Positions 1 to 19,290 of a stretch of 64,000 nucleotides of DNA are shown piece by piece; position 1 is the stretch's first letter; each line of letters starts with the position of its first letter. The stretch lies in IMG/VR virus record IMGVR_UViG_3300022752_000023, positions 62,001 through 126,000 of that record, one strand, 5' to 3'. The translations under genes were made by a program, and so were the position numbers. The notes beneath the pieces were generated by a model that was given only the letters and a program-made list of their open reading frames with translations, had not been told where the DNA came from and did no database searches. The stretch comes from a virus.

Positions 1-337
1 CGTTGTTAGGGTTTTTATTCCCTCGCCCTAGACGATCTTTGTGGTGCACGACAAGTTTTTTCTTTTTGCCGCAACGAGAACATTGTTGTTCGTCGCGTTT
101 AATTACGGCTGTTCTTTCGCCGTTAAAATGTCGTTGTTCGCGGTAATTTTTTCGATACTGCAAACAATCGGCGTGGTTGTCGTAATACCATTGTTTTTTG
201 GTGTTGGCTATGCGTTGACGATTTTTGTCGTCGTTGCGATAGCATTCCAAATAACAGATTTTGCACAGTCCTTTTGCCATATGCAGCCGTTCGGTCAGGC
301 CGCACGATTGGCAACAGGAATATTTTTTTGACCACAT
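1..337 (-). CDS. HNH homing endonuclease, intron-encoded, partial at window edge
   Basis: An open frame starts at ATG 337 and runs off the left edge (112 codons visible). The N-terminal part has two CxxC pairs (SCCQSCG near residues 7-13 and GLCKICY near 23-29), a probable zinc finger. After a basic stretch rich in Tyr and Asn there is a second CxxC (CSRCGKK near 89-95) followed directly by VVHHKD, the start of an HNH/His-Me finger motif (HHxD). The gene lies downstream of the R element inside a group I intron, the usual place for a homing endonuclease. Expected role: cutting intronless alleles of the AAA+ gene so that the intron is copied in. The catalytic C-terminal residues are outside the window, so activity cannot be judged. 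Confidence 0.82.
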   Translation of the reverse strand, partial: MWSKKYSCCQSCGLTERLHMAKGLCKICYLECYRNDDKNRQRIANTKKQWYYDNHADCLQYRKNYREQRHFNGERTAVIKRDEQQCSRCGKKKKLVVHHKDRLGRGNKNPNN

Positions 338-525
338 CTCAAAACTCTACTACAAGGCCCCCATTTCGAACCCACTTGGGTCCTACGATCTTTCGATCTA
401 GTCGTTGAACCTTCCAAGTATATTGCTACTTGGCTTGGCTGCAAGTTGCCCGGCTTACGCTGAGGGGTTTCTTGCAATTAAAGGGCTTTTCACTGATTTG
501 TCGCCAAATCAGGGGACTGAACTCA
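1..525 (-). ncRNA. Group I intron (td-like, 5' part), interrupting the AAA+ ATPase gene
   Basis: The minus strand below 525 carries the ordered core elements of a group I intron. The 5' splice site follows a GGAT at 529-526; GGATTGA pairs with TCAGTCC just inside the intron, giving a P1 helix with the required U.G wobble at the exon end. A P-like element lies at 479-464 (AATTGCAAGAAACCCC), a Q-like element at 447-434 (AACTTGCAGCCAAG) and an R-like element at 411-397 (GGTTCAACGACTAGA). A GNRA hairpin (GATC GAAA GATC) and a td-like GTAGG...TTCGAA stretch follow. No convincing S/P7 partner is seen before the HNH gene starts at 337, so that gene probably sits in the P8 loop, as in SPO1-type introns. 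The 3' splice site lies beyond position 1. Family knowledge: such introns self-splice and spread by endonuclease homing. Confidence 0.87.
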
Positions 526-1473
526 ATCCACAAACAACACGCACGGAGCCATTGCGTCAACCTGCTTGAGCGCGCGACGCATGTTACCCTCGGACTCGCC
601 CACGAACTTGCCCATGAGCGAACCGAAATCCAGCATTACGGTCGGACGACCGACTTCGTTGCCAAGTGCTTTGGCAAACTGCGACTTGCCGCAGCCCGGA
701 GGCGACAGCAAAAGAACGCCCTTGGGGCGCTTGTCTACGTTGGTTTCGCCTTGCCGCCGCATGGCGCGCAGGCAGAAACTCTTAAGGTTTTCGAGGCCGC
801 CAAGATTCTCAAAGTTGGCGTCGCCACGATAGAGCGTCATCGTACCGCTCTTTTCAAGCGTCTGCGCCTTGATACCCCAGATCGTATCGGGCGACAGCTT
901 GTTGTTGCGCACCAGCGACAGCGCGAACGCGTTCTCGGCCTCCTGCCGAGTCAGGCCGCGCGAGGCGTCAACCACCGCCGCGACTTCCTGCTCGGTCGGC
1001 TTGGCGAACGGGGAGCCGTCAGGGAACAGCTCGGTGCACACGGTCTTGAGCTGTTCCAGATCCGGCAGCTCGTGATGCACCACGGTAAACAACTTCTCTA
1101 CCTCGGGCTGCAGCTGCAGCACCGGCGCGACGATAATGATATGTTTACCCTCGCCCTTACCCTGCACGACGCGGTTTGCAAGTGCCTGCAGCACCTCCGG
1201 GTTGCCGAGAAACCGGTGAAAGTTCTTCAGCACAATAAGCATGGGCTGCTTGGGCTGCGGCTGATCAAGAAACCGCAACGCCTGTAGCGGGCCGGGAGCC
1301 TGCGCGTTCCCCGAATAAAGCTGGCGGTCGATGTCCCAGACATCGAATCCCCATTCCTTCTCTTCCGTTACACGACGAACCGACGCAATCGCGTCGTCGC
1401 ACTCCTGTGATTCAACCCAGATGCCGGAGAAGCCGGCGCATACCAGCTCCTTGATTTCTTTTTCGAGCGACAC
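526..1473 (-). CDS. AAA+ ATPase, Ycf46-like, 5' exon
   Basis: This exon gives 316 residues. A Walker A P-loop reads SPPGCGKS near residues 258-265, followed by FAKALGNEVG and a GESEGNMRRAL stretch typical of AAA proteins. The frame ends at CVLFVD, the Walker B motif, where a TGA follows because the reading frame enters the group I intron. The second Walker B acidic residue, sensor 1 and the arginine finger must lie in the 3' exon, left of the window. The N-terminal half (LVCAGFSGIWVESQE, LRFLDQP, LIVLKNFHRFL) matches the degenerate first domain of Ycf46-type ATPases. Downstream neighbours encode DUF2997 and DUF1257, known companions of this ATPase. The cellular role of the group is not established; an ATP-driven remodelling function is inferred from the fold. 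Confidence 0.85.
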
Positions 1474-1514: not shown

Positions 1515-1706
1515 TCAGTTACTTTCAGCGATTTGCTCGTCGTTGCTGGCGGTATAGAACTCGCCAGTCAGTTGCTCATCCACCTTTGCGCCTAGCGCCT
1601 GTTCCAGCGCCCGCGTGGCATCCTGACACGAACTGCCGGTGAAACCGCTCGTCTCGATCTTGGTGCCGCCCTTCGGGTCGACAACGATATGAATGGTCTT
1701 CGACAT
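1515..1706 (-). CDS. DUF2997 family small protein
   Basis: The 63-residue protein starts at ATG 1706; a longer frame reaching 1856 would read inside the upstream gene and has no family similarity. The N-terminal strand KTIHIVVDPKGG, the GFTGSSCQDATRALEQALG core with its single conserved cysteine, and the overall length fit DUF2997. Family members sit beside DUF1257 (Ycf35) and Ycf46-type ATPases in cyanobacteria and planctomycetes, and that arrangement is reproduced here: the gene lies 2 bp from the DUF1257 gene and 41 bp upstream of the AAA+ exon. Function unknown; a small adaptor for the ATPase is a reasonable guess only. Confidence 0.8.
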   Translation of the reverse strand: MSKTIHIVVDPKGGTKIETSGFTGSSCQDATRALEQALGAKVDEQLTGEFYTASNDEQIAESN

Positions 1707-1708
1707 GT

Positions 1709-2074
1709 TTAGAAACCTCCCGTCAGGCTGAGTTTGACCGAACCGTCCGGCAGCATTTCCTCGAACACCGAGTAGCCGCCCTTCTGCGCTTCGTAGATCG
1801 CCTTCTCGACCGCGTACGCCTGCAGGAACCTGTCCAGCTCTTCCTGCTTGCCCCACGCGCCGTTGTAGTTGTCATAGTTCGCGGCGCCGGTTTCCGTATT
1901 GAACACAGCCGGGAACTGCCAGCCGGGAAGCTTTACAGCGAGACCGTCCGCCGACTGCCCGGCGAAAAGAACGTGATGACCGGCCTTCGGCGTCTCAAGG
2001 CCGAGACGCTTGCAGGCCGCCTCGACGGCAGCCGCGTCTTTTACTTCCGTCTTGATCTGAACGATATGAGACAT
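1709..2074 (-). CDS. DUF1257 (Ycf35-like) protein
   Basis: A 121-residue protein beginning MSHIVQIKTEVKD and containing EAACKRLGLE, the GLAVKLPGWQFPAVF strand and YNGAWGKQEELDRFLQAYAVEKA, the recognisable pattern of DUF1257, whose plastid member is Ycf35. The C-terminal ...GGYSVFEEMLPDGSVKLSL is also typical. It is translated immediately before the DUF2997 gene (2-bp gap), and both precede the AAA+ ATPase, so the three probably act together. No enzymatic residues can be pointed out. The family is mainly plastid, cyanobacterial and planctomycetal, so its presence in a phage hints at host ancestry. Confidence 0.82.
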   Translation of the reverse strand: MSHIVQIKTEVKDAAAVEAACKRLGLETPKAGHHVLFAGQSADGLAVKLPGWQFPAVFNTETGAANYDNYNGAWGKQEELDRFLQAYAVEKAIYEAQKGGYSVFEEMLPDGSVKLSLTGGF

Positions 2075-5658: not shown

Positions 5659-5823
5659 TCACTTGCGAGTCGTTTCTTTGGCTGCTGCGGCCGCGACCTG
5701 ACACATGTAACCTATTACATTTGCCAGCCCGAAAAGACCGTAGACGAAAACATGCCCCGTGTACTTGAGGCTGTCTTCGACCCATTGAAACTCTGACTCG
5801 CTACCGCTGTTATTGTGGTTCAT
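5659..5823 (-). CDS. Small membrane protein, 54 aa, divergent from terminase
   Basis: The frame from ATG 5823 encodes an acidic N-terminus (SESEFQWVEDSLKYTGH), one hydrophobic helix (VFVYGLFGLANVIGYM), an Ala-rich stretch and a basic end (KETTRK), a sensible single-span membrane protein. Its start codon overlaps the plus-strand terminase start within the tetranucleotide CATG (5821-5824). It is the first of a row of small minus-strand membrane or unknown genes. Evidence is compositional only. Confidence 0.45.
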   Translation of the reverse strand: MNHNNSGSESEFQWVEDSLKYTGHVFVYGLFGLANVIGYMCQVAAAAAKETTRK

Positions 5824-7738
5824 GGATAAACCTGATCAAACAATTACTGAAGCAATTGACATGCCTTCCACGGGCGTGCAATCGCTTCTACAAGAATTAA
5901 TCTCAATCGATGTGACGGATGTGCAATCTGTTCACGCGCGAGCAGCTGTTTTGCAGCAGCTCGCGGGGCAGCACGCTTTCCCGTCACTCGAACCAATTTT
6001 GCCGTTGGTGTTGAACCTAAATGGACGGCCGTACAGTATTCAACACCATTTTCCTTTTTCCCCACTTTTCCGTTTACTCACACCAAAAAATCAGGTGTGG
6101 TGTACGGGGCGGCAGGTATCAAAATCGACCAGCCTAGCAGCGCACGGAGTTGTGGTGGCCAACTCTATTCCGTTTTTCAAAACGTTATTTATTACACCGC
6201 TGTACGAACAGATACGACGGTTTTCAAATAACTATGTGCGTCCGTTTATCGACCAGTCGCCAGTGAAATCACAGTGGTCCGGCACATCAACTGAGAACTC
6301 GGTGCTGCAAAGATCGTTTAAGAACAACTCGATGATGTTGTTCAGCTTTGCGCTTTTAGATGCGGATAGAGTTCGTGGTGTGTCTGCAGATCGAGTGTGC
6401 ATCGACGAGGTGCAGGATATGGATCCTGACCACGTTCCGATTATTCAAGAAACCATGTCGTATTCACGATGGGCGACTAGTTATTACACGGGCACGCCGA
6501 AGACGCTAGATAACTTAATTTACGGCTTGTATAAACGATCATCACAGGCCGAATGGTTTATACCGTGTCATTCTTGCAAGCATTGGAACATCCCTGCGCT
6601 TGAATATGACCTCGATAAAATGATCGGCCCGTACAGTATTCATATCAGCGAGAAGTATCCGGGCACCGTTTGCGCTAAATGTCAAAAGCCGGTCAGTCCA
6701 AGACATGGCCGGTGGGTGCATAGATATCCCGAGCGCCGCTGGCAGTTTTCCGGGTATCACGTACCACAGATGATACTACCGCTTCATTTCTCCGACCCTG
6801 AAAAGTGGTCAACTCTATTGTTGAAGAGGGAAGGCTTCGGGAATATGACCCAAGCCCAGTTCTACAACGAAGTAATGGGAGAAAGCGTTGATACCGGACA
6901 GAAGCTCATCAGCGAAACTGATTTGAAGGCTGCGTGCGTGCTAGACTGGGAAAACAAGAAAGATCCAGACCCTAAATGCTTTGCAAATCTTTCGCAATAC
7001 AAACACCGCATTCTTGCGATCGACTGGGGCGGCGGCGGAGAAGCAGGTATTAGTTTCACCGTGCTTGCTGTGCTGGGGTTCCGCCCGGACGGGACTATCG
7101 ACACGCTGTGGGCTAAGCGCCTGCTCATTGGCGGCGATCATTTAGCCGAAGCTGTTGAATGTATGCGCTGGTCTAACTTGTTTAATTGCGATTTTGTCGC
7201 TCATGATTACACCGGAGCCGGCACGGTCCGCGAAACAGTCATGGTGCAGGCTGGGTTTAACTTAGAGCGAGTCATGGCGATGCGGCTTGTTCGCTCCGCA
7301 TCCCAAGATTTGATGGTTTTCAAACCGCCGACAGAGATCAATCATCGGGCGCACTATAGCCTCGACAAAACGCGGTCGTTGCTGTACACGTGTCAGGCGA
7401 TCAAGCTGAAGCAAGTCAGATTCTTCCAGTATGACTGGTCGTCGCAGGATTCGCCGGGCTTGGTGTCGGACTTTCTTGCGCTGGTTGAAAATAAAGCCGA
7501 GTCTAGACTAGGCGGCGATATTTATACCATTACAAGGAACACGTTGTTGACTGACGACTTCGCGCAAGCTGTTAACCTAGGCTGCGCCGCTCTTTGGCAC
7601 GTGAATGACGCGTGGCCCAATTTCGCGGAGATCGCCGGCGTAGCGCGGTTAAGCGAGCGTACTGTCAGGGCCGAGACGCCCGTTGATGACGACTGGGCGG
7701 ATGATCCCATCGGGCGAAGCTACTTTGGCGGATACTAG
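5822..7738 (+). CDS. terL: Terminase large subunit (packaging ATPase-nuclease)
   Basis: The 638-residue protein (ATG 5822; an in-frame ATG at 5813 adds three residues) has a Walker A-like motif GRQVSKST near residues 96-103, a Walker B motif VCIDEVQDMD near 192-201, a YTGTPKT coupling motif near 224, a zinc ribbon made of CHSC (about 250) and CAKC (about 284), and a nuclease start AIDWGGGG near 399 with further acidic residues (HDYTGAG about 463). This domain order, with the inserted zinc ribbon, is that of GpA/TerL-like terminases that cut and pump DNA into the prohead. It is alone on the plus strand, more than 50 kb from the capsid genes and without a recognisable small subunit beside it. 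The start and stop overlap minus-strand genes in CATG and CTAG. Confidence 0.9.
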   Translation: MDKPDQTITEAIDMPSTGVQSLLQELISIDVTDVQSVHARAAVLQQLAGQHAFPSLEPILPLVLNLNGRPYSIQHHFPFSPLFRLLTPKNQVWCTGRQVSKSTSLAAHGVVVANSIPFFKTLFITPLYEQIRRFSNNYVRPFIDQSPVKSQWSGTSTENSVLQRSFKNNSMMLFSFALLDADRVRGVSADRVCIDEVQDMDPDHVPIIQETMSYSRWATSYYTGTPKTLDNLIYGLYKRSSQAEWFIPCHSCKHWNIPALEYDLDKMIGPYSIHISEKYPGTVCAKCQKPVSPRHGRWVHRYPERRWQFSGYHVPQMILPLHFSDPEKWSTLLLKREGFGNMTQAQFYNEVMGESVDTGQKLISETDLKAACVLDWENKKDPDPKCFANLSQYKHRILAIDWGGGGEAGISFTVLAVLGFRPDGTIDTLWAKRLLIGGDHLAEAVECMRWSNLFNCDFVAHDYTGAGTVRETVMVQAGFNLERVMAMRLVRSASQDLMVFKPPTEINHRAHYSLDKTRSLLYTCQAIKLKQVRFFQYDWSSQDSPGLVSDFLALVENKAESRLGGDIYTITRNTLLTDDFAQAVNLGCAALWHVNDAWPNFAEIAGVARLSERTVRAETPVDDDWADDPIGRSYFGGY

Positions 7739-10192: not shown

Positions 10193-10196
10193 AAAG

Positions 10197-10267
10197 AGCC
10201 CCCAGAAGGAATCAAACCCTCATCGGCTGATTACAAATCAGCTGCATTATCATTATGCTATGGGGGC
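10197..10267 (-). tRNA. tRNA-Thr (anticodon TGT)
   Basis: The 71-nt cloverleaf has acceptor GCCCCCA/TGGGGGC with T discriminator, D stem GCAT/ATGC, anticodon arm GCTGA TTTGTAA TCAGC (anticodon TGT, reading ACA) and T arm GAGGG TTTGATT CCTTC. CCA is not encoded. The D loop (AATGATA) lacks the usual GG and the T loop has T in place of C56, so the conserved G19-C56 contact is missing; this is unusual but the stems are sound. The 5' end overlaps the last 15 bp of the HNH gene, and the tRNA-like RNA begins 4 bp after it, so all three may be cotranscribed. Confidence 0.8.
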
Positions 10268-19210: not shown

Positions 19211-19290
19211 TCGCCGCCCCGCGCTGCCTAAGAGCATGAAGCCCGGAGGTTACGTGGCACGTAACCTTTCGGCAGACCGCAGGGCGGCGA
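19211..19290. ncRNA. Candidate structured RNA in intergenic region
   Basis: Within a 290-bp gap without a well-supported gene (19031-19320), TCGCCGCCC (19211-19219) pairs with GGGCGGCGA (19282-19290) over 9 bp; CTGCC (19224-19228) pairs with GGCAG (19271-19275); and GGTTACGT (19248-19255) forms an 8-bp hairpin with ACGTAACC (19259-19266) around GGC. The three helices nest correctly with an asymmetric internal loop of 19 and 4 nt. No T-run follows on either strand. The shape (two stems, large one-sided loop, GC-rich) recalls a small regulatory RNA or riboswitch-like leader, but I match it to no known class; strand is undecided. Confidence 0.45.

What the first reader, a model, noticed from the sequence alone, without database searches (positions are those of the whole stretch)
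1..1473. Group I intron inserted exactly in the Walker B codon of an AAA+ ATPase, with a nested HNH endonuclease
Seen: the ATPase frame stops right after CVLFVD, where the Walker B motif should continue with E. The stop is a TGA that pairs as GGATTGA/TCAGTCC (a P1 helix with U.G at the splice site). Further in, P-, Q- and R-like elements occur in the correct order, followed by a GNRA hairpin, then an HNH gene. Established knowledge: phage group I introns target conserved active-site codons and usually carry HNH or GIY-YIG genes; the core here resembles the T4 td intron. Inference: splicing restores an intact Ycf46-like ATPase and the HNH gene probably sits in the P8 loop. Introns in phage ATPases of this type are not ones I know of.
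Basis: partly seen in the sequence, partly recalled or inferred. Interest (0 to 1): 0.85.

Follow-up and report, generated by a model that had tools for sequence, protein, structure and literature searches.

The report
Self-splicing intron splits phage ATPase gene
A bacterial virus carries a self-splicing RNA intron, with its own DNA-cutting enzyme gene inside, exactly between two catalytic codons of a motor-protein gene; related viruses have the same gene without it, so it looks like a mobile element of a well-known kind in a gene where I found no earlier report of one.

Summary
The finding holds. The window lies in a 144-kb phage record, and the sequence to its left was available. An 809-nt group I intron (window 525 to -283, minus strand; Rfam RF00028, 67 bits, E 2e-16) splits a 494-aa AAA+ ATPase between Asp316 and Glu317 of Walker B (CVLFVD|EIEKG). 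All group I helices P1-P9 are present, with P7.1 and P7.2 joined by GUA (subgroup IA2). The complete 186-aa HNH gene sits in the P8 loop. IMG/VR holds four further distinct alleles with the intron at the same site, plus a partial one, and 42 alleles at least 60% identical without it; these run straight through at the predicted junction. The structure pairs in all 375 cells with three compensatory changes. The HNH gene is under purifying selection (dN/dS 0.09-0.27). Intron-bearing alleles are scattered in the exon tree. All share flanking codons GTG GAT|GAA, as P1/P10 pairing needs, where 41 of 42 intronless alleles have GAC|GAG. One intronless allele (L023) has GTGGAT|GAA, a candidate precise loss. 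Splicing and homing are inferred, not observed. Kind: an ordinary phage homing intron in a gene for which I found no earlier report. 'Ycf46-like' is plausible but unproven.

The parts
526..1473 (-). 5' exon of AAA+ ATPase gene (GTG start, residues 1-316, ends at Walker B Asp)
   Evidence: AAA domain E 1.4e-27 on the spliced protein
1..525 (-). group IA2 intron, in-window part; runs on to C1:61717 (= window -283), 809 nt in all
   Evidence: RF00028 67 bits, boundaries from intronless alleles
514..529 (-). P1 (GGAUUG/CAGUCC, U.G at 5' splice site); splice between 526 and 525
493..512 (-). P2 hairpin
481..486 (-). P3 5' strand (pairs with 357-362)
440..476 (-). P4-P5 (P and Q elements); P5 has a compensatory C-G to U-A change
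409..439 (-). P6-P6a
399..403 (-). P7 5' strand (R element GACUA); partner UAGUC lies outside the window (L002 after the HNH gene)
368..398 (-). P7.1 (GNRA hairpin), GUA linker, P7.2 (compensatory A-U to G-C in L044): IA2 signature
   Evidence: criterion from PMC3428280
357..362 (-). P3 3' strand
349..356 (-). P8 5' strand (CUUGUAGU; partner GCUACAAG after the HNH gene)
1..337 (-). HNH homing endonuclease gene in P8 loop (186 aa; stop outside window, L002:3777-4337 -)
   Evidence: PF01844 E 1.3e-6; PHROG HNH families; dN/dS 0.09-0.27
1515..1706 (-). neighbouring DUF2997 gene, upstream of the ATPase
   Evidence: PF11211 E 8.9e-16
1709..2074 (-). neighbouring gene with weak DUF1257 (Ycf35-like) match
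   Evidence: PF06868 E 0.004, below cut-off

Best explanation
A mobile group IA2 self-splicing intron interrupts a phage AAA+ ATPase gene between the two Walker B acidic codons. SHOWN by sequence: a complete intron with all core helices, exact exon boundaries confirmed by natural intronless alleles, an intact HNH gene under purifying selection in P8, and patchy occurrence among related phages. INFERRED: the transcript splices itself (guanosine attack after the P1 U.G, then ligation at the terminal G aided by P10 UUC/GAA), so that full ATPase is made; unspliced RNA yields only a truncated ATPase because the intron begins with UGA. Also INFERRED: the HNH enzyme cuts or nicks intronless alleles at this conserved site, and repair copies the intron with a short stretch of exon.
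For: RF00028 67 bits, E 2.2e-16, model 1-253. Splicing in silico gives 494 aa, CVLFVD|EIEKG, matching 42 intronless alleles at least 60% identical. Five distinct alleles: 375/375 cells of 75 pairs form standard pairs; slid controls give 31-46%; compensatory changes in P5, P7.2 and P9. P8 enclosing the ORF: 8 bp, with U.G to C-G in L043. HNH dN/dS 0.09-0.27 in all pairs. Intron-bearing alleles do not form a clade of the exon tree (p-AU 5e-88; at least 4 changes). L042/L044: HNH dS 0.33 against ATPase dS 0.67. Codons GTG GAT|GAA in 6/6 intron-bearing loci against 1/42 intronless. Flanks within 60 nt resemble the other intron-bearing lineage (L042 p 1e-4, L043 p 5e-4, L002 p 3e-6 after leaving out the three junction codons).
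Against: No RNA data. Endonuclease activity untested. The flank-similarity test was made after seeing the data, is weak or absent for L040 (p 0.24), and other positions in the gene sometimes score as high (1-6 of 92 centres in the significant cases). Scatter in the tree could also come from repeated loss. Only three of 75 pairs show compensatory change, because the five introns are close relatives.
Confidence: 0.93

Rival explanations
1. The intron is old and vertically inherited, and its patchy distribution reflects many losses, not homing.
For: L023 is intronless yet carries the intron-type flank GTGGAT|GAAATT and is sister to intron-bearing L044 (100/100 support), as precise loss would leave it.
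Against: At least 4 changes if losses and gains cost the same, many more if only losses are allowed; 41 of 42 intronless alleles have no footprint; L042/L044 intron ORFs are closer than their exons (dS 0.33 v 0.67); HNH gene kept under selection.
Confidence: 0.12
2. The shared flanking codons GTG GAT|GAA are kept only by selection for P1 and P10 pairing with the intron's guide sequence, not by co-conversion (compatible with the main explanation; it concerns the flanks only).
For: The three codons are just those that pair with the guide sequence; in L040 the flank beyond them resembles its intronless sisters.
Against: In L042, L043 and L002 similarity to other intron-bearing alleles extends tens of bases beyond the paired codons; an intron landing in GTCGAC|GAG would lack the U.G pair, so some flank must come with it or change at once.
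Confidence: 0.35
3. The ATPase gene is simply broken by a non-splicing insertion, and a truncated protein or two-part protein is used.
For: The reading frame ends at the first intron codon; splicing was not observed.
Against: 3' exon stays in frame with ATPase conservation in all intron-bearing alleles (ATPase dN/dS 0.04-0.23); complete ribozyme structure conserved; truncated form would lack Walker B Glu, sensor 1 and arginine residues.
Confidence: 0.03
4. Intein or metagenome assembly artefact.
For: Record is a metagenomic contig.
Against: Immediate in-frame stop rules out an intein; same intron at the same site in six separate contigs besides the window.
Confidence: 0.01

Closest known systems
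T4 td/nrdB/nrdD and other phage group IA2 introns
   Same: IA2 architecture (P7.1-GUA-P7.2), phage protein-coding gene, conserved active-site codons, endonuclease gene in a peripheral loop
   Different: host gene is a AAA+ ATPase; ORF is in P8 and of HNH type; placement in T4 introns is from memory
I-PfoP3I intron in DNA polymerase gene of cyanophage Pf-WMP3 (PMC3428280)
   Same: group IA2, HNH enzyme, 161 aa, intronless relatives known
   Different: DNA polymerase gene; ORF starts in P6a and overlaps P7; splicing and nicking shown experimentally there
Intron with endonuclease in phage PhiPA3 acting in phage competition (PMC11620839)
   Same: phage intron with homing endonuclease, intronless competitor allele
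   Different: different gene; interference shown experimentally there; not tested here
Related IA2 introns without ORF in a capsid-like gene of small IMG/VR phages (L074-L111)
   Same: identical P7/P7.1 segment GGTTCAACGACTAGATC....GATCGTAGG
   Different: no HNH gene in P8, different insertion sites and host gene, up to three introns in one gene

Membership tests
Group I intron (RF00028) | covariance-model match over cut-off | tested here: met
   67 bits v 50, E 2.2e-16, full model
Group I intron (RF00028) | P1 with U.G at 5' splice site, P3-P8 core, R/S pairing in P7, terminal G, P10 | tested here: met
   last intron base G in all five alleles; P10 UUC/GAA by inspection
Group I intron (RF00028) | removal gives uninterrupted exon as in intronless alleles | tested here: met
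Group I intron (RF00028) | self-splicing in vitro or in vivo | not testable with these tools
   no RNA data
Subgroup IA2 | P7.1 and P7.2 linked by G-U-A | tested here: met
   GAUCGAAAGAUC-GUA-GGACCCAAGUGGGUUC; criterion from PMC3428280
HNH homing endonuclease | HNH profile match and conserved catalytic His/Asn | tested here: met
   PF01844 28.8 bits v 21.4; H98 H99 N116 H125 and C86 C89 C121 C124 invariant
HNH homing endonuclease | cuts or nicks the intronless allele and drives homing | not testable with these tools
   purifying selection and patchy distribution only
AAA+ ATPase (classical AAA) | Walker A, Walker B, sensor and RFD motif | tested here: met
   PF00004 97 bits; closest PDB AFG2/CDC48 domains; FVDEIEK block invariant or nearly so
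Ycf46-like ATPase | specific relationship to chloroplast/cyanobacterial Ycf46 | tested here: inconclusive
   cyanobacterial relatives 27-29% including part of the N-terminal region; DUF2997 neighbour and weak DUF1257; no Ycf46 model used

The most novel reading that the evidence does not exclude
The intron endonuclease works as a weapon between related phages: it cuts the intronless ATPase of a co-infecting rival, and recoded intronless alleles such as L023 (GTGGAT|GAAATT) are escape or post-loss alleles, making the Walker B codons a battlefield visible as synonymous changes.
Probability: 0.12. Interest if true: 0.6.

Novelty: new member of a known kind. Interest (0 to 1): 0.42.

Why it matters
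It adds a AAA+ ATPase, cut between the Walker B Asp and Glu codons, to the short list of phage genes invaded by homing introns (mostly DNA polymerase, nucleotide reductase and terminase genes). With 42 intronless and five intron-bearing alleles, it gives a natural data set for studying how a homing intron re-writes the codons beside it, and how introns are lost. It also warns annotators that the ATPase would be called as two truncated genes.

Tried and rejected
Searching viral contigs for the guide-sequence pattern GTNGAYTGANTTCAGTCC gave seven extra loci (L112-L118), all chance matches without an intron. Looking for further RF00028 copies in 16 related records found none outside this site. 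AlphaFold of the HNH protein was too poor to use (pLDDT 58, four sequences). PDB fold search of the ATPase model gave p97/Cdc48/AFG2-type proteins at low TM (below 0.5 over the whole length), confirming AAA only. Intein and bicistronic explanations rejected because of the immediate stop and ribozyme core. Literature searches for group I introns in AAA+ genes found no report; the library is open-access only, so this is weak.

Full report
CHECK. On the minus strand the ATPase ORF (window 1473-523) ends ...PCVLFVD-TGA. The window is positions 62001-126000 of a 144,420-bp virus record, so the missing left flank could be read. Rfam finds a group I intron over the whole model at 67 bits, E 2.2e-16; the window-only copy scores 50.3. 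The intron runs from window 525 to -283 (809 nt). Removing it joins ...GTG GAT to GAA ATC GAA AAG, giving 494 aa with CVLFVD|EIEKGLAG. The insertion is phase 0, between Asp316 and Glu317, in the most conserved block of the protein: across 17 diverse homologues F314, D316, E317, I318, E319 and K320 are invariant.

NATURAL CONTROLS. A scan of viral contigs with the spliced protein found 64 loci. Most encode the ATPase without a break through the junction. Five (L040, L042, L043, L044 and its duplicate L053) are broken at exactly the same place by 809-814-nt introns, and a sixth contig (L072) ends inside one. Searching with the HNH protein and with the P7-P7.1 motif found the same contigs. Among 16 related phage records RF00028 occurs only at this site. 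The 40 phage GenBank records listed with a homologue are matched in one piece across this position; 87 further records were not inspected.

RIBOZYME. With the ORF left out, the five distinct introns align without gaps. A hand-built structure (P1, P2, P3-P8, P7.1, P7.2, P9, P9.1; 75 pairs) is fulfilled in 375 of 375 cells; slid controls reach 31-46%. Compensatory changes occur in P5 (C-G to U-A), P7.2 (A-U to G-C) and P9 (U-A to C-G); P8 and P9 also show one-sided changes. The introns are close relatives, so most pairs do not vary. P7.1 and P7.2 are joined by GUA, the IA2 sign (criterion in PMC3428280). More than half of known viral group I introns are IA2 (PMC11835236). The 5' core folds better than 199 of 200 shuffles.

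HNH GENE. The ORF begins at intron position 189 and ends at 749 in all alleles; its last codons form the 3' strand of P8, and in the window copy the stop codon is part of P7. It matches HNH and phage HNH families; its closest solved structure is an HNH endonuclease at a weak E of 0.003. dN/dS is 0.09-0.27 in every pair, so it is not decaying. The catalytic residues and zinc cysteines are invariant.

MOBILITY. In a tree of exons without the junction codons, the intron-bearing alleles fall in four places; holding them together is rejected (p-AU 5e-88), and four changes are needed. L042's nearest relatives (L021, L045) and the window's relatives (L003-L007) are intronless. The L042 and L044 HNH genes (dS 0.33) are closer than their ATPases (dS 0.67). 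All six intron-bearing loci read GTG GAT|GAA; of 42 intronless alleles 41 have GAC|GAG and 41 lack GTG. The coded amino acids at the junction are the same in all but a few distant alleles. These are the bases that pair with the guide sequence (P1 GGAU with AGUCC; P10 GAA with UUC), so an intron landing in GTCGAC|GAG would lack the splice-site U.G pair. Similarity to the other intron-bearing lineage extends up to 60 nt for L042, L043 and L002 but not L040; this was tested after the fact and is moderate evidence for co-conversion, a known companion of homing (PMC3984707). L023 is intronless, sister to L044, and carries the intron-type flank GTGGAT|GAAATT: a candidate precise loss, or an exon-only conversion.

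HOST GENE. The ATPase has a classical AAA domain. Cyanobacterial homologues at 27-29%, a DUF2997 neighbour and a weak DUF1257 neighbour fit a Ycf46-like module (that Ycf35 is a DUF1257 protein is from memory), but membership is not proven. Its function in the phage is unknown.

VERDICT. A genuine, well-supported phage homing intron of a known kind in a gene for which I found no earlier report (open-access library only). Splicing and homing remain to be shown at the bench. What is most useful scientifically is the allele set, not the element type.

Noticed in passing
L023:4001-5497 (junction): Intronless ATPase allele with intron-type flanking codons GTGGAT|GAAATT, sister to intron-bearing L044: possible precise intron loss.
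   Followed up: partly
L074-L111, e.g. L097:5998-7457: Closely related ORF-less IA2 introns, two or three in one capsid-like gene, in small IMG/VR phage contigs.
   Followed up: partly
L002:3777-4337: HNH protein has similar CxxCG...KGLCxxC motifs at both its N- and C-terminal ends flanking the HNH domain; the stretch between the N-terminal motif and the HNH domain comes in two versions that do not follow the rest of the protein (L042 like the window, L044 like L043), suggesting recombination.
   Followed up: no
window 19213-19288: Match to Rfam DUF3800-VIII RNA on the minus strand, 44.8 bits (cut-off 40.2).
   Followed up: no
window 10196-10267: tRNA-Thr (anticodon TGT), the only tRNA in the window.
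   Followed up: no
window 5813-7738: Terminase large subunit gene (phrog_675, E 1.7e-54), plus strand, opposite to the ATPase gene cluster.
   Followed up: no
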